Shown piece by piece: positions 1,721-36,753 of a stretch of DNA of 36,753 nt. How positions within the stretch are numbered: the first letter of the stretch is position 1; each line of letters opens with the position of its first letter. The notes beneath the pieces are model-generated. The model had not been told where the DNA came from, did no database searches, and was given only the letters and a program-made list of their open reading frames with translations. The DNA comes from a virus, in the IMG/VR virus record IMGVR_UViG_3300025086_000099, positions 1 through 36,753 of that record; one strand, given 5' to 3'. A program made the position numbers and the translations under genes.

Positions 1721-1869
1721 ATTGTTTAAATTGTAAAGCTGAATTAGTTTGGGGTGGAGATCATGATGCAGAAGACGATAGCGAATATTCAATTATAACT
1801 AATTTTTCTTGTAAAAAATGTAATTGTTATGTAGAAGTCTATCTTCCAAAAAATGCAGCCATTACCTAA
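1717..1869 (+). CDS. Small zinc-ribbon protein
   Basis: A 50-residue frame starting in the ATGA overlap with the small terminase stop and ending 17 nt inside the large terminase gene. It has two CxxC pairs, Cys3/Cys6 and Cys32/Cys35, plus an acidic linker (GGDHDAEDDSE) between them, as in a minimal zinc ribbon. The chained overlaps with both terminase genes support it as a real gene. Its role may be linked to packaging, but there is no direct evidence for that. Confidence 0.65.
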   Translation: MNCLNCKAELVWGGDHDAEDDSEYSIITNFSCKKCNCYVEVYLPKNAAIT

Positions 1870-3574
1870 AAAACTACAAGACTTTAGATATTTCTTAATC
1901 GTTACCTGGAGACATCTAAACCTACCAGACCCTACACCAGTTCAGTTAGACATAGCTGAATACCTACAATATGGTGCTAGACGTAAGATCATACAGGGAT
2001 TCAGAGGTGTAGGTAAGAGTTGGATTACTTCTACATACGTTGTGTGGAGACTTCGTATGAATCCACAGCTTAAATTCTTAGTTGTCTCAGCCAGTAAAGA
2101 CAGAGCAGATAATTTTACTACCTTCACTATGCGTCTTATAAACGAGATGCCTATACTATCTGATTTGATCCCCAGAGATGACCAGAGAAACAGTAAGGTA
2201 AGTTTTGATGTAAGACCAGCACAAGCCGATCATGCACCCTCCTGTTCGTCCAGAGGGGTCTTAGGGCAGATGTCTGGTGCTAGGGCTGATGAAGTTATAG
2301 CTGATGACGTAGAAGTTCCTAATAATTCCTTTACTCAACCTATGAGAGATAAGTTATCGGAAGCTGTAAAAGAATTTGAAGCAATACTAAAACCAAATGG
2401 CAAGATTACCTTTCTCGGTACACCACAAGTAGAAAATTCTGTATATCTAACCTTAGAAGAAAGAGGATATGAAACTAGAATCTGGACTGCACGTTATCCA
2501 GAACTAAAAAACAACTACGGAGATAGACTTGCTCCCAAGATCCAGAAAGAACTCCTGGAAGGTCTTGTAAAGCCTAAAGATCCTGTAGATCCTATAAGGT
2601 TCTCTGCACAGGATCTAATGGAACGTGAAGCTTCCTACGGACGTTCTGGATTTAACCTTCAATTCCAACTGGACACCACCCTTTCAGACCAAGATAGATA
2701 CCCATTAAAGATAAACGACCTGGTAATTGCTTCCATCAACAAAGAATTTGCACCAGAAAAAGTTATCTGGTCTAATAATCCCGAATATGTAATACAAGAT
2801 CTTCAATGTGTAGGCTTCAATGGTGACAGATTTTACCGACCTGCACAGGAATTTGGTGACTTCATAGAATATACAGGTTCAGTTATGTTCGTTGACCCAT
2901 CAGGAAAGGGAAAGGACCAGACCGCTATAAGCTGCGTGAAGATGCTTAATGGTAATTTATACGTTACTGAGTGTTTAGGACTGTCTGGGGGCTATACAGA
3001 CCCTGTTCTGGATAAAATATCAAGACTAGCTAAAGAAAATAATATTAATACTATCCTTATTGAACAAAACTTTGGTGGTGGAATGTTTGCTGAACTACTA
3101 AAACCTTTCATCTCACGCATACACCCTTGCAAAATTGAAGACATCAGAAACAACAAGACCAAAGAATTACGCATAATTGATACCCTAGAACCTGTTATGA
3201 ACTCTCACCGACTAATAATTGACCGCAAAGTGATAGAAAAAGACTTCCGTTCCAACCCTCAAGAGACTCCAGAACGTAGATTAAAACTTCAACTTGTCTA
3301 TCAGCTATCACGAATCTCTCGCCACAGAGGTTCTTTAGTTCACGATGACCTCGTAGATTCCCTCGCAGGGGCAGTAGCCTACTGGACTGACTATATGGCT
3401 CAAAATGAAGACCTAAACATGGCTAGAAGGCAAGATGAACTTCTTTCAATACATACAGATAACTGGAACTCTCTCTTCAATAACACTATCTCTCAGTCCG
3501 CTATGGGTATGAACTCTCAACAGATAAGAAATTCTAATGTATCTACCGATGGATTTATAAGTGACGCTTATTAA
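1853..3574 (+). CDS. Terminase large subunit (T7 gp19-like)
   Basis: Encodes 573 residues, close to T7 gp19 (586). It is the ATP-driven motor and nuclease that packs DNA through the portal and cuts concatemers. The N-terminal ATPase shows Walker A GFRGVGKSW (49-57) and a Walker B with acidic pair VIADDVE (148-154). A later LGTP (188-191) fits the coupling motif. The C-terminal RNase H-like nuclease shows FVDPSGKGKD (346-355), a Glu at about 404 (ILIEQ) and HDDLVDSLA (497-505), supplying the acidic metal ligands. It is the last gene before the 486-base non-coding region. In T7 the right genome end follows gene 19. Confidence 0.95.
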   Translation: MQPLPKKLQDFRYFLIVTWRHLNLPDPTPVQLDIAEYLQYGARRKIIQGFRGVGKSWITSTYVVWRLRMNPQLKFLVVSASKDRADNFTTFTMRLINEMPILSDLIPRDDQRNSKVSFDVRPAQADHAPSCSSRGVLGQMSGARADEVIADDVEVPNNSFTQPMRDKLSEAVKEFEAILKPNGKITFLGTPQVENSVYLTLEERGYETRIWTARYPELKNNYGDRLAPKIQKELLEGLVKPKDPVDPIRFSAQDLMEREASYGRSGFNLQFQLDTTLSDQDRYPLKINDLVIASINKEFAPEKVIWSNNPEYVIQDLQCVGFNGDRFYRPAQEFGDFIEYTGSVMFVDPSGKGKDQTAISCVKMLNGNLYVTECLGLSGGYTDPVLDKISRLAKENNINTILIEQNFGGGMFAELLKPFISRIHPCKIEDIRNNKTKELRIIDTLEPVMNSHRLIIDRKVIEKDFRSNPQETPERRLKLQLVYQLSRISRHRGSLVHDDLVDSLAGAVAYWTDYMAQNEDLNMARRQDELLSIHTDNWNSLFNNTISQSAMGMNSQQIRNSNVSTDGFISDAY

Positions 3575-3612: not shown

Positions 3613-3660
3613 ACACTAAGGATTACACTTAAGAATACACTTAAGAATACACTAAGGGGG
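3613..3660 (+). repeat. Four tandem 12-bp repeats near the presumed genome end
   Basis: Units start at 3613, 3625, 3637 and 3649. The two central units are identical (ACACTTAAGAAT) and the outer two begin ACACTAAGG. T7 carries comparable short repeat arrays next to its terminal redundancy, so this array may mark the packaging end. Confidence 0.7.
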
Positions 3661-3837: not shown

Positions 3838-4018
3838 TTATATTATTTATGGGGTATTTGGTCAATTCTTTTGATTGACTATGTATATTTCTAAGTAATC
3901 GCTAGGGGGGTATATATTACAAAATGTTAAGTTGGATTTCATAAGTGATACTAAGGGGTTAGGGGAAAGTTTCTATTGAAGCCTTGCAGTTGGCAACAGT
4001 ATATGTCATGATGTCTAC

Positions 4019-4035
4019 ATCGGATTCAAACCGAT
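4019..4035 (+). promoter_or_regulatory. Leader hairpin before the first early gene
   Basis: ATCGG (4019-4023) pairs with CCGAT (4031-4035) over loop ATTCAAA, followed by an A/C-rich unpaired leader ending TAAGAACCACA before the ATG. It resembles the downstream hairpin of the four early competing-hairpin modules that follow, but I find no upstream competitor arm. A smaller hairpin TTGC/GCAA lies at 3984-3996. Confidence 0.4.
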
Positions 4036-4060
4036 CAACCAAACCAAACTAAGAACCACA

Positions 4061-4255
4061 ATGCAAACAATTAAAGTATCTACAAGATCAGCTTATGGTC
4101 AAACTTATGTAGATGTTATTGATGACAAAACTAGAGGGGCTTTACAGTCTTTAACAGGCAACTCAACTCTTACTCAAAACAATATCAACTCTTTGAAAGT
4201 CCTAGGCTTTAACTTTGAGTTAGTCCAGGACAAACCACAAGACATTAGTTTTTAA
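4061..4255 (+). CDS. Small early protein of unknown function
   Basis: Encodes 64 residues. No motif, membrane segment or cysteine pattern is recognised; the middle is Thr/Asn/Gln-rich. It is the first gene after the long non-coding region, so probably among the first expressed. It has an A/C-rich leader without Shine-Dalgarno sequence that ends in the TAAGAACCAC box shared by several early genes. The stop is followed at once by a competing-hairpin module. Confidence 0.55.
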   Translation: MQTIKVSTRSAYGQTYVDVIDDKTRGALQSLTGNSTLTQNNINSLKVLGFNFELVQDKPQDISF

Positions 4256-4256
4256 C

Positions 4257-4308
4257 GATTCCTTAAAGCCTTTAGCTAGGCTTTAAAGAGTCCTTAAACC
4301 GAGACTCT
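4257..4308 (+). promoter_or_regulatory. Competing-hairpin RNA module A (upstream of the gene at 4337)
   Basis: Structure 1: GATTC (4257-4261) pairs with GAGTC (4288-4292), enclosing an inner stem 4263-4271 with 4278-4286. Structure 2: AGAGTC (4287-4292) pairs with GACTCT (4303-4308). The 4288-4292 segment cannot be in both. The U4259-G4290 wobble forms only in plus-strand RNA. Modules B, C, D and E have the same design with different stem sequences. It sits just after one stop codon and 28 bases before the next ATG, as expected for a leader switch or processing site. Confidence 0.55.
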
Positions 4309-4336
4309 ACAAACCAAAACCAAATTAAGAACCATT

Positions 4337-4915
4337 ATGACCACTTTGTTAAGTGTTGAAGAAACAAACAAACTAAGCATTTCTAAACAGATTGAAGCTT
4401 TAACAATGAAAACATTAGACCGAGATAGAGAAGATCTAGCAGAGTTTAAAAAGATCATTGAATTTTTAAAACCTTACGAAGGAAAGAAACTAACTAAAAC
4501 AGTATTAAGGAAACTTAATATATTTTTAGATAGACCTTATACAAAAACTGAGCATGGGGAATGTATGAATAGTAAAGGTTATTTTTCCAGGCAGATATGC
4601 CAGGATTCATGTTCTTATATCGAACGCTTAGACTATTCAAACTCAGGCGGTAGGCAAGGATTAAGCATACTTTTAAGTCAGTCTGAAAAATGCCCAGTAA
4701 TAAATATTAATTTTATTATTGAAGAAAATCCTTATTATTCTAAAACACTACAAAAGAACATAGGCAAGGCAACAAGTCTTTTAAGTTATCGCAAGCATAG
4801 AGAACTTGCGAAAAGATGGGAAAGATTAAACAATGCTATGTATGAATATAGACAGTTGTTAGATCAATTCCCAAACAAATACGCTTTAAAAGAATTAGGC
4901 CTTGAATCTTATTGA
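4337..4915 (+). CDS. Early protein of unknown function
   Basis: Encodes 192 residues, the longest of the small early genes. It is charged and predicted mostly helical, with four Cys in the middle, three of them clustered (ECMNSKG, QICQDSC), but no clear zinc-binding pattern and no signal or membrane segment. The ATG follows the recurring TTAAGAACCA leader box, and there is no Shine-Dalgarno sequence. It is flanked on both sides by competing-hairpin modules. No family is recognised. By position it may be a host-takeover protein; that is inference only. Confidence 0.6.
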   Translation: MTTLLSVEETNKLSISKQIEALTMKTLDRDREDLAEFKKIIEFLKPYEGKKLTKTVLRKLNIFLDRPYTKTEHGECMNSKGYFSRQICQDSCSYIERLDYSNSGGRQGLSILLSQSEKCPVININFIIEENPYYSKTLQKNIGKATSLLSYRKHRELAKRWERLNNAMYEYRQLLDQFPNKYALKELGLESY

Positions 4916-4917
4916 AT

Positions 4918-4965
4918 CTTTCCAGGTGGGCTGTTAAGCCTACCTTGAAAGGCTCTCAACCTTTC
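4918..4965 (+). promoter_or_regulatory. Competing-hairpin RNA module B (upstream of the gene at 4998)
   Basis: CTTTC (4918-4922) pairs with GAAAG (4947-4951) around an inner 9-bp stem, AGGTGGGCT (4924-4932) with AGCCTACCT (4937-4945), loop GTTA. Alternatively GAAAGG (4947-4952) pairs with CCTTTC (4960-4965). The G-U pair inside the inner stem indicates function as plus-strand RNA. It lies between the stop at 4915 and the ATG at 4998. Confidence 0.6.
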
Positions 4966-4997
4966 ACTTACAAACCTTATTAAGAACCACTAAACAA

Positions 4998-5201
4998 ATG
5001 TTAAATACTACAATGTATAACTTCTTAGATGCTCGCTATCAAGTCCACAAAGTCTTTTGTGGACATGAAAAAGCAATGTATCAAAGTTTATTTTGTGACG
5101 AGCTACTAGGTTTTTCTGATACACAAGCTGAAGCCGAATGTAATTGTTATCAACATAGGCTTAACTTCTATAAAGAATTAGAAGAAGGCTTTAAGTCATG
5201 A
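4998..5201 (+). CDS. Small early protein of unknown function
   Basis: Encodes 67 residues with four Cys and three His spread along the chain (VFCGHE, LFCDE, AECNCYQHR), so metal binding is possible but no standard motif is met. A second in-frame ATG at 5013 could be the real start. The A/C-rich leader carries the TTAAGAACCAC box. Its stop overlaps the next ATG (ATGA), so the two are translated together. Function unknown. Confidence 0.55.
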   Translation: MLNTTMYNFLDARYQVHKVFCGHEKAMYQSLFCDELLGFSDTQAEAECNCYQHRLNFYKELEEGFKS

Positions 5202-5362
5202 GTAAATCAAAATACATTTACAGGACTTATGACGAGTCAAGTATTGATGGCATTAAGAAAGCCGATAGAGAACATAACAGGCTTATTAACTTAGGTTATA
5301 GAGTAAGCCATACATCATGTAGTCCTTTTACTGCATATATGACTTACGAGTTATGTTCTTAG
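5198..5362 (+). CDS. Small early protein of unknown function
   Basis: Encodes 54 residues, starting in the ATGA overlap with the preceding stop and ending just before competing-hairpin module C. It is basic at the start and rich in Tyr and Ser (five Tyr before residue 51). No motif recognised. Support comes from the translational coupling, the clean start and stop, and codon use like its neighbours. Confidence 0.55.
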   Translation: MSKSKYIYRTYDESSIDGIKKADREHNRLINLGYRVSHTSCSPFTAYMTYELCS

Positions 5363-5365
5363 ATT

Positions 5366-5414
5366 CTTTCTCAGAGGGCTTTATAGCCCTCTCTGAAAGG
5401 CTCTTAAACCTTTC
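5366..5414 (+). promoter_or_regulatory. Competing-hairpin RNA module C (upstream of the gene at 5442)
   Basis: CTTTC (5366-5370) pairs with GAAAG (5395-5399) around AGAGGGCT (5373-5380) with AGCCCTCT (5385-5392). Alternatively GAAAGG (5395-5400) pairs with CCTTTC (5409-5414). Compared with module B, the outer and competing arms are the same but the inner stem differs on both sides and still pairs, which is compensatory change. Confidence 0.6.
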
Positions 5415-5441
5415 ACTTGTAAACGTAACTATTAACCACAA

Positions 5442-5606
5442 ATGATTGTATTAGAAATCCTATTAACAGTAGGTGTAGTTGTACTTTTTGCTGAGCTTGC
5501 AGACCGGTTTGACAGGTATGCAAGACATCACAAGTTAGTACAAAACAAAAGAGATAGAAAGCCTAAGACCTTAGAAGGTGAATTTATTCCAGGATTTCAC
5601 GATTAG
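5442..5606 (+). CDS. Small early membrane protein
   Basis: Encodes 54 residues. Residues 1-19 are a hydrophobic helix (MIVLEILLTVGVVVLFAEL), followed by a strongly basic stretch (ARHHKLVQNKRDRKPK), so the protein is probably anchored with its C-terminus in the cytoplasm. The leader follows module C and ends ATTAACCACAA before the ATG. No family recognised. Phage early membrane peptides of this size often act on host envelope enzymes, but nothing here shows that. Confidence 0.55.
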   Translation: MIVLEILLTVGVVVLFAELADRFDRYARHHKLVQNKRDRKPKTLEGEFIPGFHD

Positions 5607-5661
5607 TAGTCCTTAAAATTCCGTAGGCCAAAGTTAGTCAGCTTATTTTATAAAAGAATTA

Positions 5662-5732
5662 GGTTGACTTTCCTTTTATTCTTTGGCATACTTATATATA
5701 GGTATGTCAACCCTTAAAAGTCGTTTGACTTT
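5662..5732 (+). promoter_or_regulatory. Competing-hairpin RNA module D (upstream of the gene at 5766)
   Basis: GACTTT (5666-5671) can pair with AAAGTC (5717-5722), enclosing an inner stem GCATACTT (5686-5693) with AGGTATGT (5700-5707). The same AAAGTC can instead pair with GACTTT (5727-5732) over loop GTTT. A further alternative is GGTTGAC (5662-5668) with GTCAACC (5706-5712). Two wobble pairs in the inner stem form only in plus-strand RNA. Same logic as modules A-C, with new stem sequences. Confidence 0.5.
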
Positions 5733-5765
5733 ACCACTAACCAAATTCTAGGAGCCACAAAGCAC

Positions 5766-5933
5766 TTGAAAAGAAAAACTTATCAGACTGTATGGGAATT
5801 AGAGTCTATTTATATCAGAGCTTGCAGAGTTGCAGGCATAAATCCTGATATTGAATCTTATAAAGACCTTGATAATAAAGAAACTATTGTCATTCTTAAA
5901 AGATTAATTGTAAAAACTATCACCAACATTTAA
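5766..5933 (+). CDS. Small early protein, TTG start
   Basis: Encodes 55 residues from a TTG codon, supported by a TAGGAG Shine-Dalgarno-like sequence at 5749-5754 that its neighbours lack. The frame is closed by TAA, directly followed by the AAAGGAGA of the next gene. The protein is basic and probably helical (TVWELESIYIRACRVAG, ETIVILKRLIVK). No family recognised. Confidence 0.5.
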   Translation: MKRKTYQTVWELESIYIRACRVAGINPDIESYKDLDNKETIVILKRLIVKTITNI

Positions 5934-5945
5934 AGGAGAATCACA

Positions 5946-6122
5946 ATGAAACAAGAAGACAACGATCAGTATGACCTTACTGAACTAGAGAATGATGAAG
6001 TCATTAGAAAACTTCTTAATATCTCAATGAGTAGTAGTGACTATTACTCTATGCCTGAGTTTAGAGCAAAACATTTTGTTGTTTTAACTAGACTTCAAAA
6101 ACTTTATAACGAAGGCGAATGA
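5946..6122 (+). CDS. Small acidic early protein
   Basis: Encodes 58 residues with an acidic N-terminus (QEDNDQYDLTELENDE) and a more basic C-terminus (AKHFVVLTRLQKLY). It has a good Shine-Dalgarno sequence, AAAGGAGA at 5932-5939, about 7 bases before the ATG. Its stop overlaps the next start (ATGA), beginning a chain of four overlapped genes. Function unknown. Confidence 0.55.
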   Translation: MKQEDNDQYDLTELENDEVIRKLLNISMSSSDYYSMPEFRAKHFVVLTRLQKLYNEGE

Positions 6123-6262
6123 ATTTTATGGAAGAACTTGAAAAGGAAACTCAAGCCATGTTGAAACAAATCAACATAAGAAAAATTGAGAAAACAAACA
6201 ACGCTAAGAAGCGGATAGCTGAACTAAAAAAACTTATTAAATTCTGGGAGCAAGACTTATGA
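6119..6262 (+). CDS. Small coiled-coil-like early protein
   Basis: Encodes 47 residues, almost entirely Lys/Glu/Leu-rich helix (EELEKETQAMLKQI, AKKRIAELKKLIKF), compatible with a short coiled coil. The start lies in the ATGA overlap with the previous gene and the stop in the ATGA overlap with the next. Function unknown. Confidence 0.5.
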   Translation: MNFMEELEKETQAMLKQINIRKIEKTNNAKKRIAELKKLIKFWEQDL

Positions 6263-6420
6263 CACAAGAAAGAGATTCTTTAGAAGATAAAAAAAGGTGG
6301 GATTCTTTTTGGAATAACCCTGATTTATCTAAACGTGAAGCTTTTAGATTATGGAATACTAAACCTAATTGTTTAACAAAACAACAAAGGTTATTAATCA
6401 AAGAATTATTTTCACAATGA
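6259..6420 (+). CDS. Small early protein of unknown function
   Basis: Encodes 53 charged residues with three Trp (KKRWDSFW, FRLWNTK). It starts and ends in ATGA overlaps, so it is coupled with both neighbours. No motif recognised; it precedes the NrdR-like zinc ribbon. Confidence 0.5.
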   Translation: MTQERDSLEDKKRWDSFWNNPDLSKREAFRLWNTKPNCLTKQQRLLIKELFSQ

Positions 6421-6650
6421 AGTGTACAAAATGCGGCAGCCAGGATATAAAAGTTCGAGAAACTATTTATAGAAAGGCTGAACAGACTAAAGGCTTCCGA
6501 AACAAAAGCAGCACACCTTATGTCTATAGACGTAGGGTGTGTTCTTGTGGTCATAGATTTACCACAAGAGAATATACAATTCCTGATCTTATAGCCTTTG
6601 GCAAACAGGGTTATCTTGAAATGATAGATGACCTGATGCCTAACAAATAA
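6417..6650 (+). CDS. NrdR-like zinc-ribbon protein without the ATP-cone
   Basis: I start this gene at the ATG at 6417, inside the ATGA overlap with the previous stop, giving 77 residues that begin MKCTKCGSQDIKVRET. The ribbon is CxxC (Cys3, Cys6), then RRRVCSCGHRFTTRE (about residues 38-52). This is very close to the N-terminal zinc ribbon of the bacterial NrdR repressor, which controls ribonucleotide reductase genes. The ATP-cone that senses dATP/ATP in NrdR is missing: only about 25 residues follow. It may bind NrdR boxes or act as a decoy, or be a general phage zinc-ribbon regulator. No reductase gene is in the phage. Confidence 0.7.
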   Translation: MKCTKCGSQDIKVRETIYRKAEQTKGFRNKSSTPYVYRRRVCSCGHRFTTREYTIPDLIAFGKQGYLEMIDDLMPNK

Positions 6651-6672: not shown

Positions 6673-7524
6673 ATGAAAACTAAAATGCCTACACTTTCTG
6701 AAGCAACCAGGGTTGTATATAAAAGAAGGAAGAACGGAACTAAATCTGCTACTAATTTCTTGATAGGAATGAAGCATAACATCAAAGCACTTGGGGATCT
6801 ACCAGTAAATAAAATTACTAGACCCTTAGTAAATAAAATGATGGATTATCACAAAGAAAAATTAAAGAATAGTAATGCAGTTATCAATCAGAAGATGGGT
6901 TATCTTAGGGTTGTCTTATCTGAAATGGAAGAGGACGGATATATAGAAATGATAAAAATGCCAAAACCTAGACCTACAAAGAACAGTAAGGTTCATTACC
7001 TTACCGAGGATATGGAAAAAGAACTGTTAAAATATATATGGCTTAATTCTTCTTTTGAAAATATACAAACTGTTGATATTGTTACTTGTTTAATTGATTT
7101 AGGTTGCAGAGTAAATGAGTTATTAAATTTAGAAAAAAGGTTTATTGACTTTGACAATAATCAAATCAACTTCAATGAAAGAAAGAACGATCAAGCTGTA
7201 GCTGTTCCTATGACAGATAGAGTGCAAACAATAATGAAAAAATACTATAAAAAAGTAAAAGATTTTGACAAAGTTTTTAATATTAATTACACACAACTAA
7301 ATGCTGTATGGCAGAAGGCTAGGAAGGACTTAGGCTATGCCGATAAGAAGTTTTATACTATCCACCTATGCCGACATACCTGTGCATCAAGGCTAGTACA
7401 AAGAGGAGTACCGATACTGTTAGTTAAAGATTGGCTAGGGCATGAAGACATAGAGAACACCATGATATATGCTCACCTCGCACCTAAAGCACTTCATAGT
7501 GTGGTCGGAGTATTGAATGATTGA
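6673..7524 (+). CDS. int: Tyrosine recombinase / integrase
   Basis: Encodes 283 residues. The C-terminal catalytic domain has all expected residues: Arg146 (GCRVNELLNL), Lys171 (ERKND), His231 and Arg234 (HLCRHTCASR), His257 (LGH) and the Tyr266 nucleophile (MIYAHL). Residues 20-100 form the usual SAM-like core-binding domain. Such enzymes join attP to a host attB, commonly in a tRNA gene. Cyanopodoviruses such as P-SSP7 carry one at the same place, ahead of the RNA polymerase gene. The last 8 nt overlap the polymerase start. No recognisable tRNA-matching attachment site follows. The leader ends TTAAAGAACCACC, like other early genes. Confidence 0.93.
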   Translation: MKTKMPTLSEATRVVYKRRKNGTKSATNFLIGMKHNIKALGDLPVNKITRPLVNKMMDYHKEKLKNSNAVINQKMGYLRVVLSEMEEDGYIEMIKMPKPRPTKNSKVHYLTEDMEKELLKYIWLNSSFENIQTVDIVTCLIDLGCRVNELLNLEKRFIDFDNNQINFNERKNDQAVAVPMTDRVQTIMKKYYKKVKDFDKVFNINYTQLNAVWQKARKDLGYADKKFYTIHLCRHTCASRLVQRGVPILLVKDWLGHEDIENTMIYAHLAPKALHSVVGVLND

Positions 7525-9913
7525 GCCTAGCAAGAAACAACTAGAGCTAGAGCAAAGTATCTGTAGTATCTCAGCCTATAACAAGATCAGTAAACAAAAT
7601 AAAAACATAGAAAAAGGTAGAGAATCAGAGAACTATTATGCTCGCAACATCATAGAGTCAGGACTACAGAGATTAAGTAAAGCCATAGAAGAACATATAG
7701 AAGAAAGTCTAAGCGGTAAGGTTGGTGTCAAAGCTGTCTCTGCTTTGTTTCTTTCACAGTTCCCAGACGTAGATGTAGTTTCCTTTATTGCTTTCAAAGT
7801 ATTACTGGATAATGCTTCGCAACTAAAGACAACTGTTACTACTGCTTTAAAGATAGGGCAGAAGTTAGAAGACGAACTAAGGTTTACTAAGTTTGAAGAA
7901 CTAGACCCTAAACATTTTAGGAATATAAAGAAACATACCAGAGATACCAGGCATGAAAGGTATAAAAGAAATCTTTTGGTCTATCACATGAACAGTAAAG
8001 GCCATGACTTTCAGACTTGGACAAGAGGTAATAAGGTTAAGGTTGGTCTAAAGTTGATTGAGTTGGTAATGATAAAAATTAATATGGTCAGAATGATTAA
8101 TAAAAAGGTAGGTAAAACATCAGCAAGTTATGTAGTTTTTACTGAAAGGTTTATGAAGTATATAAGACAGGGTAGAACAAACAGGATAGCTGCCTTTCCT
8201 ATATATCTTCCTTGCTTAGACAAACCTCGCCCTTGGAAGTCCATTGACGAGGGTGGATATTTTACAGACAGACTAAAAGCAAAAGCTATAAAGAGTTCTA
8301 ATCGAGACTACCTAAACACACTACGAACAGAAGACTTATCAACAAGTTTGAAAGCGTTAACTCTGGCGAGTCAGACAGCCTGGGAAGTAAATCAATTTGT
8401 ATTAGAAACTCTTGAATACTGTTGGGAGGAACGAATAGAGGTTGGTTCATTAATTGATAGGGAGCTTGCAGAACTGCCAACAAAACCACTTGATATAGAT
8501 ACAAATAAAGAAGCAAGAAAAGAGTGGCGATATATGGCTTCCTTAATACATGATATGAACCATCAGAATATGGTCAAGCGGTATCAGATACTATCCATGA
8601 TTGATACAGCTAAAAGATATATTGGTGAAAAATTTTATCACGTTTATCAGTTTGATTTTACTGGTCGTATGTACCCAATGACTGCACACTTTCACCCACA
8701 AGGTAATGATATTGCAAGAGGATTACATAGGTTTCATAAAGGTGCAGAGATAAGAACTAAACAAGATTTAAACTGGCTTGCCATAGCAGGTGCTAATCAT
8801 TGGGGTATGAATAAACATACATATGAGGAAAGATTAGAGTGGGCTTATATAGAAGGTACTGATCTTGCAGAAGAAGTTTATAAAGATCCTTTGGCTAATG
8901 TTGGTATCTGGGGTAAGGCAAAAGAACCATTTCAATTCCTTGCCTGGTGTAGAGAATGGTCTGAGTTTCAAATTACAGGTTGGGGTTATATCTCTCATCA
9001 TGTTTGCTGTCTTGATGGTACAAATAATGGCTATCAACATATAGCAGGTCTTATATCAAATAAACATTTAGCTAATAAAGTAAATCTACAAAATGAAAAA
9101 CAACCACAGGATTTATATAAACAAATCCTTGATATTCTATTGCTATTACTGAAGAGTGAAGACTCTGAACAAGCTAAAGAATGGTATAAGTTAAAAGATA
9201 AATTAACAAGAAAGTTTATAAAGAAACCTGTACTTATGATTCCATATAATTCAACAACATTCGGGATAGCAAACTATATAGAAAAATATTTTGTAAATGA
9301 AAATGTTTTTATGGCAAAAAATTATAAGAACAATTTCTATCTGGCAAGCATGATAGAACAAGCAGTTAAATATGTAACCCCAGAAAGTTATGAAGTTCTA
9401 AAATATTTACGGACTACAGCTTCTTGTTTCAATAACGAGAATAAATCTATTTCCTGGCATACACCATCAGGTTTCTTTGTGCAGCAAAACTACCACAAGA
9501 ATGATATTAAAATTGTCAGAACTAAATTAAGCGATTCAAGTATGAGGTTACATCTAAACGAACCTGATAGAAGTAAAGTAGATAAACGTAAACAGTCACA
9601 AGGTTTTCCTAGTAATTATATTCATAGTCTTGATGCTGCACATTGCCACTTGAGTTTGGTTGAAGCAAGCAAGCATGGACTTACAAACTTTTGCGTTATC
9701 CATGACTGCTATGGAAGCCCTGCAAGTGAACTACAAAAATTTATTGAATGTGTAAAGCAAAGTTTTTTTAAAATTTATAGCGATAATAATTTAGATAATT
9801 TATATCAACAGACAGCAAGCCAGTTAAGTGATACCAGTAAATTACCAACAGCACTAGATATGGGAGACTATGAAATTAAAGATGTCTTGACTGCACCATA
9901 TATATTTACATAA
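7517..9913 (+). CDS. T7-type single-subunit DNA-directed RNA polymerase (gp1-like)
   Basis: Encodes 798 residues, shorter than T7 (883) mainly at the N-terminus, as in other cyanopodoviruses. It should transcribe the middle and late phage genes from phage promoters. Key residues are visible: the YQFDFTGRMYP segment (about 377-387), motif A Asp500 in LDGTNNGYQH, motif B Lys569 and Tyr577 in KKPVLMIPYNS (equivalents of T7 Lys631 and Tyr639), His703 in YIHSLDAAH, and motif C Asp730 in IHDCYGS. After Tyr577 there is Asn where T7 has Gly640. The gene overlaps the integrase by 8 nt and should be made with it. Confidence 0.95.
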   Translation: MIEPSKKQLELEQSICSISAYNKISKQNKNIEKGRESENYYARNIIESGLQRLSKAIEEHIEESLSGKVGVKAVSALFLSQFPDVDVVSFIAFKVLLDNASQLKTTVTTALKIGQKLEDELRFTKFEELDPKHFRNIKKHTRDTRHERYKRNLLVYHMNSKGHDFQTWTRGNKVKVGLKLIELVMIKINMVRMINKKVGKTSASYVVFTERFMKYIRQGRTNRIAAFPIYLPCLDKPRPWKSIDEGGYFTDRLKAKAIKSSNRDYLNTLRTEDLSTSLKALTLASQTAWEVNQFVLETLEYCWEERIEVGSLIDRELAELPTKPLDIDTNKEARKEWRYMASLIHDMNHQNMVKRYQILSMIDTAKRYIGEKFYHVYQFDFTGRMYPMTAHFHPQGNDIARGLHRFHKGAEIRTKQDLNWLAIAGANHWGMNKHTYEERLEWAYIEGTDLAEEVYKDPLANVGIWGKAKEPFQFLAWCREWSEFQITGWGYISHHVCCLDGTNNGYQHIAGLISNKHLANKVNLQNEKQPQDLYKQILDILLLLLKSEDSEQAKEWYKLKDKLTRKFIKKPVLMIPYNSTTFGIANYIEKYFVNENVFMAKNYKNNFYLASMIEQAVKYVTPESYEVLKYLRTTASCFNNENKSISWHTPSGFFVQQNYHKNDIKIVRTKLSDSSMRLHLNEPDRSKVDKRKQSQGFPSNYIHSLDAAHCHLSLVEASKHGLTNFCVIHDCYGSPASELQKFIECVKQSFFKIYSDNNLDNLYQQTASQLSDTSKLPTALDMGDYEIKDVLTAPYIFT

Positions 9914-17870: not shown

Positions 17871-19118
17871 ATGGCTAACGCCACAGTATCTCGTCTTGGT
17901 TTGGTTAATAATACTGGTACAGCGTTTGACGCTCTTTTTCTGAAAATTTTTTCGGGGGAAGTCCTAACTGCGTTTGCCAGAAACAACATTTTTAACGAGC
18001 AACTACATTCAGTTCGTACTATCACAAGTGGTAAGTCAGCACAGTTCCCAGTATTAGGAACTGCTACTGCTGCATATCACACAGTAGGAACTCCACTTGT
18101 AGGAGCAAACCAAATCAAGGCAAACGAAAAGATTATCAACATTGATGATCTATTAATTGCCCAAAGTTTTATAGCGAACATAGATGAGCTTTTTTCTAAA
18201 ATGATTAGAGCCTTTTGCTGGTAACAGCAATAAGATAACAAGGTGAATTGCTGGAAATCCTCCAATAAAAAGGACAATCAGCAGCCAAGCTAACCTACAA
18301 GTTAGAAGGTTCAACGACTAACTCCCGATAGGAAACTAAGTAACGGAGACACGAGTGCCTTGCAACCCACAGGGTTGAAGATATAGTCTGAACTGCATCA
18401 ATGGCAAAGATGCAGAACTAAAGGATAAAGAGCCTTTAGGGTAACAATCTTGAAGAATCATTATGACGTTAGAGCTACCTATGCTGATGAGCTAGGTAAG
18501 GCACTTGCCAGAACGTATGACCAAAACGTAGCGAAGCAAATCGCTAACGCTTCCAGAGCTTCTACTAACCTTAGTGGTGGTAATGGTGGTCTTGTTCTTA
18601 CACTTGCTACTGGTAACACAAACTCTGCTGCTGTAACTGGAGATGAGATAGCAGCAGCTATCTATGACATTGCACAGACATTTGACGAAAGAGACATTCC
18701 TCCAACAGATCGTTTCTGTGTACTACCACCTGCTGAGTACTACAAACTTGCTGAGTCTGCTACAAGAACTGTAGATGTTGACTTTAACCCAGGTGGTAAT
18801 GGTTCATTTGCTTCTGGTCGTGTACAACAAGTTGCAGGTATTCCTGTAATGATGAGTAACAACGTACCTCAATCAAACGTAGGATCAAACCCATCAGGTG
18901 CTAACAACACTTACTCAGGTGACGATAGTAAAACTATTGGTCTTGTCTTCCACAAATCTGCTGTTGGTACAGTTAAATTAATGGATATGACAACTGAGAT
19001 CTCTGGTTCTGACTACGGAATTATGTATCAAGGTACATTAATGGTTGCTAAGTATGCTCTTGGTCATGGAATCCTAAGACCAGAATGTGCAGCTACTATT
19101 AAGTTATCTGCTACTTAA
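17871..19118 (+). CDS. Major capsid protein (T7 gp10-like), interrupted by a group I intron
   Basis: The coding sequence is two exons, 17871-18191 (107 codons) and 18453-19118 (221 codons plus stop), joined after intron removal to a 328-residue protein; T7 gp10A has 345. Exon 1 ends ...NIDEL and exon 2 begins KNHYDVRATY, restoring the conserved NHYDVR segment of T7-type capsids. Without splicing, translation would stop after 117 codons (last residues FSKMIRAFCW). The spliced protein is the main shell subunit. The gene follows the scaffold and the basic-protein cassette, and is followed by a strong terminator, as T7 gene 10 is by T-phi. Confidence 0.9.
18192..18452 (+). ncRNA. Group I intron (subgroup IA-like) in the capsid gene, no homing endonuclease
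   Basis: 261 nt. The 5' exon ends GCUU and pairs with GAGC in the intron, putting the required U-G wobble at the splice site; the intron ends with G18452. Helices found: P2 18215-18220/18225-18230 with a GUAA loop; P3 18239-18245/18356-18362; P4 UUGCUG near 18248-18253 with CAGCAG near 18279-18284; P6 GCUAAC.../GUUAG; P7 GACUA 18316-18320/UAGUC 18384-18388; P8 18363-18368/18372-18377; P9 18393-18399/18409-18415; a last hairpin 18418-18424/18433-18439. An extra stem (CUCC/GGAG) between P7 and P3 fits subgroup IA, usual in phages. The R (UUCAACGACUA) and S (AAGAUAUAGUC) boxes are classic. Confidence 0.93.
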
Positions 19119-35212: not shown

Positions 35213-35364
35213 CTTACAAATTACTATACACAGATTCAGATACAGGTAAAAAAATATACAAGAAAGTAAGTGCTGATGGGAAATCATACTCATCATGTTC
35301 AGAAGATAATCTAGATTTTAAAGCATGGGTAGCAGAGGGAAACACAGCCGAAGCTGCTGATTAA
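35209..35364 (+). CDS. Small hypothetical protein after the fibre
   Basis: The start is chosen at 35209 (ATGA overlap with the fibre stop), giving 51 residues: TYKLLYTDSDTGKKIYKKV and SEDNLDFKAWVAEGNTAEAAD. A longer upstream frame overlaps the fibre gene and is not needed. Similar small proteins follow fibre genes in marine phages as I recall; function unknown. Its end overlaps a small minus-strand frame. Confidence 0.55.
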   Translation: MTYKLLYTDSDTGKKIYKKVSADGKSYSSCSEDNLDFKAWVAEGNTAEAAD

Positions 35365-35489
35365 TTAGTCTTATGTTGCATCTGCCTTGTCATAAGGCTC
35401 ATAGTGACATACAAAGGTGCTAGTGCCATAATTCCTACAAAAGTTATTATGGTGACAGGTACTAAGGCTCTAGCAAAAGCTTCTCTCAT
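35361..35489 (-). CDS. Possible 42-residue membrane peptide on the minus strand
   Basis: The frame runs from the ATG complement at 35487-35489 to TAA at 35361-35363, almost exactly filling the 128-base gap between two plus-strand genes. The product starts MREAFARALVP and has one hydrophobic helix at about residues 8-31 (VTIITFVGIMALAPLYVTM), then a polar tail. The helix and exact fit argue for a real gene; the short length argues for caution. If real it is a single-helix membrane peptide, possibly lysis-related. Confidence 0.45.
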   Translation of the reverse strand: MREAFARALVPVTIITFVGIMALAPLYVTMSLMTRQMQHKTN

Positions 35490-35492
35490 AAT

Positions 35493-35999
35493 ATGGATGA
35501 AATATACTACCCAAACCTACCAGATACAAACTATATACTCAATCCTCCTAAAACAATTTTTTATCCCCCTGTAGCGGAGATACCTTATTTAGATCCAGTT
35601 CTTTTACCGAGTCTGGAACAAGTTCAATCGGGTTTGGCAGAAGAGAAGGCAAATACTTCTTCAAAAGAAAAGGAGCAAGACGAGGAAGTAACAGGTATAA
35701 AGCAAGAAGTGATCCCAACGAACCTGCCAAAAAACTTAGAAAATACTTCAACAGAAGAACCTATAGCTACTTTTAATGTACCGTTCTTTGGTGATTTTCC
35801 AATACCTGCACCAGAAGTTATAGCTTCTAGTGTTATAGCAGCAGGTACAGCTAGTGTTGTAAGTGTTGCAGGTGGTGTTGCTATGCAGGCTGTAGTAGGA
35901 CAAATAAAAAAGATATTTAAAAAAATTATTACTAAAGTTTTAAAGAAAGAAGTAGCTAATGTAAAGGAAAAAATGACAGAGAAAAAAGATAAGCTATAA
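35493..35999 (+). CDS. Membrane-anchored protein of unknown function
   Basis: Encodes 168 residues. The proline-rich N-terminus (NPPKTIFYPPVAEIPYLDP) and a charged middle are followed by one Ala/Val/Gly-rich hydrophobic helix at about 108-136 and a Lys-rich C-terminus (KKIFKKIITKVLKKE). Similar proteins occur in cyanophages as far as I recall, without known function. It is the last plus-strand gene before the structured RNA region. The ATG has no clear ribosome site. Confidence 0.6.
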   Translation: MDEIYYPNLPDTNYILNPPKTIFYPPVAEIPYLDPVLLPSLEQVQSGLAEEKANTSSKEKEQDEEVTGIKQEVIPTNLPKNLENTSTEEPIATFNVPFFGDFPIPAPEVIASSVIAAGTASVVSVAGGVAMQAVVGQIKKIFKKIITKVLKKEVANVKEKMTEKKDKL

Positions 36000-36027
36000 T
36001 AACTAATACGAGGTAATCTCCAAAATC

Positions 36028-36041
36028 CTAACGGACTAGGT
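36028..36041 (+). ncRNA. Short hairpin leading into the structured RNA array
   Basis: CCTA (36028-36031) and TAGG (36038-36041 region) can pair over ACGGAC-type loop sequence, about 20 bases before unit 1 of the array. TGCCTCTAC at 36048-36056 is nearly complementary to the conserved GTAGGCA of the units. Minor feature, shown for context. Confidence 0.3.
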
Positions 36042-36059
36042 TGACAATGCCTCTACTAA

Positions 36060-36119
36060 ACAAGGGAAGCTGTAGGCACACTAGCTAGATCTAGTCCCTG
36101 TTCGAGGACGATCCCTTGT
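36060..36119 (+). ncRNA. Structured RNA repeat, unit 1
   Basis: The outer stem ACAAGGGA (36060-36067) with TCCCTTGT (36112-36119) closes a probable three-way junction. Inside are the conserved box GGAAGCTGTAGGCA (36065-36078), a hairpin ACTAG/CTAGT, a short second hairpin with loop CTGTTCGA, and the conserved box CGAGGACGATCC (36103-36114). No open reading frame. Not a family I can name. Confidence 0.7.
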
Positions 36120-36122
36120 ACT

Positions 36123-36186
36123 AAACAAAGGAAGCTGTAGGCATATTGGCTCGATTCAATCTCTGCTCGAAGATGATCCTTTGTTT
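36123..36186 (+). ncRNA. Structured RNA repeat, unit 2
   Basis: The outer stem AAACAAAGGA (36123-36132) with TCCTTTGTTT (36177-36186) has an A-U pair where unit 1 has G-C, a compensatory change. It has the same conserved box (36130-36143), hairpin ATTG/CAAT, and a second hairpin ATCT/AGAT with loop CTGCTCGA, then CGAAGATGATCC (36168-36179). Confidence 0.7.
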
Positions 36187-36187
36187 T

Positions 36188-36255
36188 ATAAGTATTGGAA
36201 GCTGTAGGCAAGTTAATTAAATTTAACCTCTGACCGAAGATGATCCAGTACTTAT
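36188..36255 (+). ncRNA. Structured RNA repeat, unit 3, ending in a terminator
   Basis: The outer stem is 12 bp, 36188-36199 with 36244-36255, including a U-G pair that exists only in plus-strand RNA. Inside are the identical GGAAGCTGTAGGCA box (36197-36210), hairpin GTTAA/TTAAC, and CGAAGATGATCC (36235-36246). The 3' arm runs into T's at 36255-36261, so this unit can also act as an intrinsic terminator for the plus strand. Its end overlaps the stop codon of the minus-strand gene. Confidence 0.7.
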
Positions 36256-36753
36256 TTTTTTGTCTTAAAAAGGTTGGGATTAGCTTTTACATAACTTCTT
36301 ATATTTATTACATCACTACAAAGACCTGCATAAGGTGATTTAGGATTAATCATATAACCGCTTGCATGAAGCTGTGAACACTTTAAAACTCTCACTAATT
36401 GCTTATCATGCACTTGCTTTGATAATTCTTCTTTGGCTAGGTCTAGCTTTACTTTTGCTAGATCCTCACACGTTTGATTACTACCGCCTAATGGAATCAT
36501 AAAACTCATTTGTACCCCCCAACCTTCATTGATGCTATAAGTTTCTTCTCCTTGAGCATCATTACCTGTATAAAAAGGAGTTACAGCCATTGTAGGTTGA
36601 CTGCAAACCAAGTTCCCAAACTGTTGTTTGCCTGTCATTCCATTATTGATATTCATATTCTGATTAATTATTGATGAATTACCTACAGCATTAGGTTGAG
36701 CCTGTACATTTGTATCGCCTTCGGCTCTTGCTTTATTACTGACTAAAGACAGA
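36252..36753 (-). CDS. Secreted protein of unknown function, C-terminal part (start at 211)
   Basis: The minus-strand frame runs from the window end to TAA at 36252-36254. Because 36581-36753 repeats 1-173, the true start is the ATG at 211-209 and the joined protein has about 179 residues; a shorter frame from the internal ATG at 36656 would lose the signal peptide. Two Cys in GNLVCSQ and QTCEDL and two more further on (LKCSQL, GLCSD) could form disulphides after export. The middle has PFYTGNDAQGEETY and GWGVQMSFMIPLGG, which looks beta-like; then a Lys/Glu helix. Function unknown. The stop lies inside the stem of structured RNA unit 3. Confidence 0.75.
   Translation of the reverse strand, partial: LSLVSNKARAEGDTNVQAQPNAVGNSSIINQNMNINNGMTGKQQFGNLVCSQPTMAVTPFYTGNDAQGEETYSINEGWGVQMSFMIPLGGSNQTCEDLAKVKLDLAKEELSKQVHDKQLVRVLKCSQLHASGYMINPKSPYAGLCSDVINIRSYVKANPNLFKTKK
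36581..36753. repeat. Terminal overlap, right copy (matches 1-173)
   Basis: Same stretch as 1-173 with five silent differences, all in the first 47 bases; the remaining 126 bases are identical. See the left copy for interpretation. Confidence 0.85.

What the first reader, a model, noticed from the sequence alone, without database searches (positions are those of the whole stretch)
4257..5732. Recurring competing-hairpin modules before early genes
Modules A (4257-4308), B (4918-4965), C (5366-5414) and D (5662-5732) share one design: arm, inner hairpin, shared segment, short loop, second copy of the first arm. The shared segment can pair upstream or downstream but not both. Stem sequences differ between modules (GAGTC, GAAAG, GAAAG, AAAGTC) while the pairing logic is kept, and G-U pairs fix the RNA sense as plus. 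Each lies between a stop codon and the next start. This looks like a reusable RNA switch, processing site or attenuator set for the early operon.
Basis: seen in the sequence. Interest (0 to 1): 0.8.

Follow-up and report, generated by a model that had tools for sequence, protein, structure and literature searches.

The report
Cut-and-refold hairpins between phage genes
A family of ocean viruses that infect the cyanobacterium Prochlorococcus separates its first genes with a repeated ~80-base RNA connector that can fold in two competing ways; it is probably a site where the long RNA is cut and the freed end snaps into a protective hairpin.

Summary
The window is a T7-like, integrase-carrying cyanopodovirus related to Prochlorococcus phage P-SCSP2 (MPP-C clade). 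Modules A, B and C are real: 3 found, 0 in 400 dinucleotide shuffles. Relatives hold 125 distinct copies in at least 75 contigs. Copies chosen on the downstream pairing alone keep the upstream arm in 121/121; copies chosen on the upstream arm alone keep the downstream arm in 124/127. Three sequence classes (CUUUC, GAUUC, UCUCU) replace one another at junctions while both pairings and two mismatches persist. The two folds are near-isoenergetic. Copies sit at nearly every non-overlapping junction of the first early transcription unit and never beyond the second early promoter. D is different: a sigma-70-like promoter plus that transcript's leader hairpin. Primary early transcripts also begin with covarying 5' hairpins. 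Best reading: RNase III-type processing sites like T7's R sites, built so that a cut in the internal loop frees the shared segment to refold as a 5'-terminal hairpin on the downstream mRNA. The dual fold is shown by comparison; cutting, enzyme and protection are inferred. No Rfam family matches. I rate it a new variant of a known kind.

The parts
4019..4035 (+). 5' leader hairpin ATCGG-ATTCAAA-CCGAT of the first early transcript (putative promoter P1 just upstream, about 3976-4010)
   Evidence: 13 distinct relatives' leaders, nearly all with a hairpin here with changed stems, e.g. ATCAGATC/GATTTGAT; P1 assigned by conservation and position only
4251..4308 (+). Module A (class II connector): outer arm 4251-4255 (holds the stop codon TAA 4253-4255), arm GATTC 4257-4261, upper stem 4263-4271/4278-4286, shared GAGTC 4288-4292, re-pairing arm GACTCT 4303-4308
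   Evidence: class II copies in relatives
4914..4966 (+). Module B (class I connector): outer GA 4914-4915 (end of stop codon TGA), arm CTTTC 4918-4922, upper stem 4924-4932/4937-4945, shared GAAAGG 4947-4952, re-pairing arm CCTTTCA 4960-4966
   Evidence: class I copies in relatives
5362..5415 (+). Module C (class I connector): outer GA 5362-5363 (G is the end of stop codon TAG), arm CTTTC 5366-5370, upper stem 5373-5380/5385-5392, shared GAAAGG 5395-5400, re-pairing arm CCTTTCA 5409-5415
   Evidence: nearest isolate copy in P-SCSP2 36254-36317, 92% identical
5664..5692 (+).
   Evidence: conserved in relatives
5716..5732 (+).
   Evidence: 48 distinct P2 leaders nearly all start with a 5' hairpin of varied sequence
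4061..4255 (+). early gene 1 (64 aa, unknown) upstream of A
4337..4915 (+). early gene 2 (192 aa, unknown) between A and B
4998..5362 (+). overlapping early genes 3 and 4 (67 and 54 aa) between B and C; no connector at their overlap
5442..5606 (+). early gene 5 (54 aa, unknown) downstream of C, before P2

Best explanation
A, B and C are copies of an intergenic RNA processing connector. As the polymerase passes, the upstream arm, the upper hairpin and the shared segment fold into one ~20-pair irregular stem with a small internal loop, the shape of a T7-type RNase III site. A host double-strand-specific RNase cuts the 3' side of the internal loop. The upstream mRNA is left ending in the upper hairpin. 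The downstream mRNA starts with the freed shared segment, which at once pairs with the second copy of the arm and becomes a 5'-terminal hairpin with 0-1 unpaired leading bases, shielding the new 5' end from RNase E. Processed mRNAs thus get the same 5' hairpin design that the two primary early transcripts carry. Shown here: both folds, their conservation, covariation, position and energy balance. Inferred: the cutting, the enzyme, the cut position and the protection.
For: Both pairings kept in 121/121 and 124/127 copies under reciprocal selection. On 18 distinct arm sets both 5-pair stems covary: score 1.08 and 1.14 against shuffled means of 0.39 and 0.40, 0/500 shuffles, slid versions at most 0.34. 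Inner mismatch (UxU, CxU, CxA or a 2x2 loop) is present in all 125; the outer mismatch opposes C with A, U or C in classes I and II, never G. The two folds differ by about -1.8, -1.1 and 0.0 kcal/mol in the three classes. A fragment starting at the internal-loop base folds with 0-1 leading unpaired bases in 125/125. Where both ends of the first unit are seen, 28 of 29 gaps of 45 nt or more hold a module and all other junctions overlap or are 4 nt or less; 183 module records lie upstream of P2, 0 downstream. P1 and P2 leaders carry covarying 5' hairpins. T7 R1.1, with its published cut at nt 5887 (PMC8708148), gives a fragment whose 5' end folds into a hairpin using the lower-stem strand. RNase III genes occur in all sequenced cyanobacteria (PMC10989914).
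Against: No transcript ends, cleavage or half-life data for these phages were available here. Much of the covariation is between three classes that may have separate origins; within class I the arms hardly vary. Three near-identical class II-like copies lack the second arm. A fourth connector type with one 12-bp hairpin and no consistent re-pairing serves similar junctions. P-SCSP1u, another MPP-C phage, has no module. Most T7 R sites (R0.3, R1, R1.3) show no 5' hairpin after an assumed homologous cut.
Confidence: 0.6

Rival explanations
1. Translation-gated switch. The stop codon of the upstream gene lies in or beside the upstream arm, so a terminating ribosome covers that arm. When the upstream gene is translated the long stem cannot form and the downstream hairpin forms instead; when it is not, the long stem forms and the RNA is cut or decays. 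The module would couple the fate of the downstream gene to translation of the upstream one.
For: Stop codon ends within 8 nt of the arm in 105/125 copies, and by its position falls inside the outer stem in most class II copies and many class I copies. Near-isoenergetic folds suit a switch.
Against: Compact phage genomes put features close to stop codons anyway; some copies have the stop 10-19 nt away or inside the arm; start sites are not sequestered in either fold.
Confidence: 0.15
2. Insulating 5'/3' hairpins without cutting: each connector is a 3' stabiliser for one gene next to a leader hairpin for the next, sharing bases only for economy.
For: Primary leaders also have 5' hairpins; a simple-hairpin connector class exists.
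Against: Does not explain conservation of the lower stem pairing with the upstream arm, nor the kept mismatches.
Confidence: 0.12
3. Binding site for a phage or host RNA-binding regulator that locks one of the two folds.
For: Many near-identical copies in one operon; conserved loop CUC..AA in class I.
Against: Three classes with different arm and loop sequences replace each other; no candidate regulator recognised among the window's early proteins of this unit.
Confidence: 0.08
4. Transcription attenuator: one fold is a terminator, the other an antiterminator.
For: Two exclusive folds between genes.
Against: No U-tract after either hairpin; the terminator scan finds none at A-C, while relatives have a clear terminator-like hairpin with a U-tract only at the end of the unit, before P2.
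Confidence: 0.03

Closest known systems
T7 early-region RNase III processing sites (R0.3 to R1.3)
   Same: Lie between genes of the host-polymerase early unit of a T7-like phage; 9-10 bp upper stem, small loop, internal loop, lower stem. R1.1 cut at nt 5887 gives a fragment whose lower-stem strand refolds into a 5' hairpin.
   Different: No sequence similarity seen; the finder scores none of the T7 sites examined as a dual-fold module of this design; small 1x1 or 2x2 internal loops here; a dedicated re-pairing arm is present in almost every copy here, in few T7 sites.
5' stabilising stem-loops of bacterial mRNAs (for example recA, vacA 5' UTR, PMC7509114)
   Same: Hairpin at or next to the 5' end, then an unstructured linker and the start codon.
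   Different: Here the hairpin strand is also part of a larger upstream stem, so it is available only after cutting or refolding.
Mycobacteriophage cluster K extended start-associated sequences (recalled from own knowledge, not checked)
   Same: Repeated inverted-repeat element plus a start-associated motif before many genes of one phage.
   Different: No alternative pairing known to me; unrelated phages and sequences.

Membership tests
T7-type RNase III processing site | between genes of the host-RNAP-transcribed early unit | tested here: met
   (that host RNAP transcribes the unit is inferred from its position before the phage RNAP gene and the sigma-70-like P2)
T7-type RNase III processing site | irregular stem-loop of about two turns with an internal loop below an 8-10 bp upper stem | tested here: met
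T7-type RNase III processing site | cut by RNase III, single cut in the internal loop | not testable with these tools
   needs RNA or enzyme; enzyme family present in all sequenced cyanobacteria by literature
T7-type RNase III processing site | post-cut downstream fragment starts with a hairpin (seen in T7 only at R1.1 and, more weakly, at the assumed R0.5 cut; so not a strict defining feature) | tested here: met
   predicted fold in 125/125 copies; T7 comparison
Intrinsic terminator or attenuator | G+C-rich hairpin followed by a U-tract | tested here: not met
   sequences
Any Rfam 15 family (riboswitches, leaders, processing elements) | covariance-model match | tested here: not met
   no match at gathering score near the modules nor up to E 5 in 3900-5900

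The most novel reading that the evidence does not exclude
A phage RNA module in which one strand is used twice: first in an RNase substrate stem, then, after the cut or after ribosome termination at the embedded stop codon, as a 5' cap-like hairpin, so processing, mRNA protection and possibly translation state are tied together in a reusable ~80-nt gene connector.
Probability: 0.2. Interest if true: 0.8.

Novelty: new variant of a known kind. Interest (0 to 1): 0.62.

Why it matters
The paper describing MPP-C reports it as abundant and cosmopolitan (PMC9860041). How the early mRNAs of these phages survive in a host whose RNase E gene is induced by a related T7-like phage (PMC10989914) is open. 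A compact connector that would both separate genes and protect each new 5' end would explain it, is directly testable with the cultured isolate P-SCSP2, and would be a ready-made part for stable multi-gene expression in cyanobacteria.

Tried and rejected
Rfam search, gathering and permissive: nothing near the modules. A loose finder gave many coding-region hits, replaced by a tight one with a shuffle control. Pattern search of 84,980 bacterial and archaeal genomes gave 88 hits in scattered phyla, none titled as cyanobacterial; my estimate of the chance expectation for 17 fixed bases is about 90, so no host source is indicated. D was rejected as a member. Terminator/attenuator rejected. Two class I pattern rows inside the integrase gene were chance hits and were dropped. 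No modules found in P-SSP7 or P-SCSP1u. First MAFFT alignment across classes introduced gaps; replaced by a fixed-spacer composite of the arms only. Literature searches found no description of such an element; the library lacks most subscription journals.

Full report
What the window is. The 36,753-base record is a virus record with the gene set of a T7-like cyanopodovirus: terminase 1853-3574, early genes 4061-6650, tyrosine integrase 6673-7524 and single-subunit RNA polymerase 7517-9913 (terminase by homology of position with P-SCSP2). Its closest isolate among the annotated phages is Prochlorococcus phage P-SCSP2 (73% DNA identity over the integrase and polymerase region; polymerase 71% protein identity), a member of the MPP-C clade that lacks DNA polymerase (PMC9860041). 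IMG/VR gave 62 loci related to the polymerase and 52 related to the integrase.

Conservation test. Chosen on the downstream hairpin only, 79 class I, 32 class II and 10 class III distinct sites in relatives all have the upstream arm; the only failures are chance matches in other viruses. Chosen on the upstream hairpin only, 82, 31 and 11 have the downstream arm; one class I failure is the antisense strand and three class II-like failures (L010, L014, L124) are near-identical copies. The final set of 125 copies has arms CUUUC/GAAAG/CUUUC, CUUUC/GAAGG/CCUUC, GAUUC/GAGUC/GACUC, GAUUC/GAAUC/GAUUC, GAAUC/GAUUC/GGGUC, UCUCU/AGAGA/UCUCU and UCUCU/AGGGA/UCUCU, plus one copy with a broken end pair. Own pairs are complete in 125/125 (upstream) and 124/125 (downstream); arms swapped between classes never pair completely. 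Formal counts on 18 distinct arm sets give covariation scores of 1.08 and 1.14 against 0.39 and 0.40 in shuffles, with 0/500 shuffles reaching them and slid versions at 0.34 or less. Most of this signal is between the three classes, which may not be descended from one another; it shows that the architecture is selected, not that each base changed by compensation.

Details that speak for a processed stem. The inner mismatch is U-U, C-U, C-A or a 2x2 loop in nearly every copy (two or three have a larger loop). The outer mismatch sets a C against A, U or C in classes I and II, never against the G that would close it. The long and alternative folds differ on average by -1.8 (class I), -1.1 (II) and 0.0 (III) kcal/mol at 37 C, and -2.1, -1.7 and -0.3 at 25 C. 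If the RNA is cut at the internal loop, the downstream fragment folds into a hairpin that starts at its first or second base in all 125 copies.

Context. Copies lie just after a stop codon (within 8 nt in 105/125) and a median of 42 nt before the next start, among 28 families of upstream and 35 families of downstream proteins; the same gene family can carry class I, II or III (families by single-linkage BLAST of short proteins, so the numbers are approximate). In 11 contigs where the first unit is complete, 28 of 29 gaps of 45 nt or more hold a module; connectors there are 70-84 nt long and all other junctions overlap or are at most 4 nt. The one exception is a simple-hairpin connector, class IV, seen also in other relatives. 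All 183 module records (not de-duplicated) in loci with a recognisable second promoter lie upstream of it.

What D is. The second promoter P2, TTGACT-17-CATACT at 5664-5692 (the scan as a whole finds no more promoter-like sites than shuffles do, so the case for P2 rests on its conservation), is preceded in relatives by a terminator-like hairpin ending in a U-tract. D's first arm is part of this promoter, so a P2 transcript cannot contain it; D's second half is the P2 leader hairpin. In 48 distinct relatives the P2 leader almost always starts with a hairpin whose sequence varies with pairing kept (AGUUAUG/CAUAGCU, AGUUAUG/CAUAACU, AGUCAUG/UAUGACU, GGUAU/AUACC); 13 distinct P1 leaders behave likewise, 12 of them with a clear hairpin. 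So hairpin-first leaders are the rule for early mRNAs here, and the modules would give the same leader to internal, processed ends.

Mechanism. The best-supported reading is a processing connector of the T7 R-site type with a built-in refolding step. The steps shown by sequence comparison are the two folds, their conservation, position and energy balance. The steps inferred are cutting by a host RNase III, the position of the cut, and protection from RNase E. Support from known biology: RNase III genes occur in all sequenced cyanobacteria and the host RNase E gene is induced during infection by the related P-SSP7 (PMC10989914); T7 R1.1 is cut at nt 5887 and this matures and protects T7 mRNA (PMC8708148). 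Reading T7 itself, the fragment from 5888 folds as GAUUGACC-loop-GGUUAAU one base from its end, using the strand that formed the lower stem before the cut. That is the same logic in one T7 site; R0.3, R1 and R1.3 do not show it.

Rivals. A translation-gated switch is the most interesting rival, because the stop codon sits in or beside the upstream arm. Insulating hairpins without cutting, a protein-binding site and an attenuator are less likely; the last lacks any U-tract.

Limits. Nothing here measures RNA. P-SCSP1u and P-SSP7 have no module, so the device belongs to the integrase-carrying branch as far as seen. The literature held does not describe it, but most subscription journals could not be searched.

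Noticed in passing
window 17871-19118: The major capsid protein gene is split into two reading frames (17871-18224 and 18450-19118, both matching Gp10A-like) by a complete group I intron at 18188-18415.
   Followed up: partly
L008:2543, L057:3175, L102:3407, L154 and others: A fourth connector type (class IV) with one covarying 12-bp hairpin (CGCCTAGAAGGTG..CATCTTCTAGG) replaces the dual-fold module at a late junction of the first early unit; a short re-pairing GGUAU/AUACC appears in only a few copies.
   Followed up: partly
window 5664-5692 and relatives: In relatives a terminator-like hairpin GTCAACCC..GGGTTGACTTTTTTT shares its 3' arm with the -35 box of the second early promoter.
   Followed up: partly
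T7 NC_001604 5845-5910 (L284): The fragment downstream of the published R1.1 cut folds into a hairpin at its 5' end that reuses the lower-stem strand, the same logic as the modules.
   Followed up: partly
window 4051, 4327, 4982, 6663 and relatives: Many starts are preceded closely by GAACCAC or GGAGCCAC, often without a Shine-Dalgarno sequence; a start-associated motif of unknown role.
   Followed up: no
L172 (P-SCSP2) 35301-36251: The gene before the P-SCSP2 module encodes an ArdC-like anti-restriction protein (ArdcN plus zincin-like metallopeptidase).
   Followed up: partly
window 3617-3660: Short direct repeats (TTAAGAATACACT) between terminase and the first early gene, near where a genome end would be expected from gene order.
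   Followed up: no
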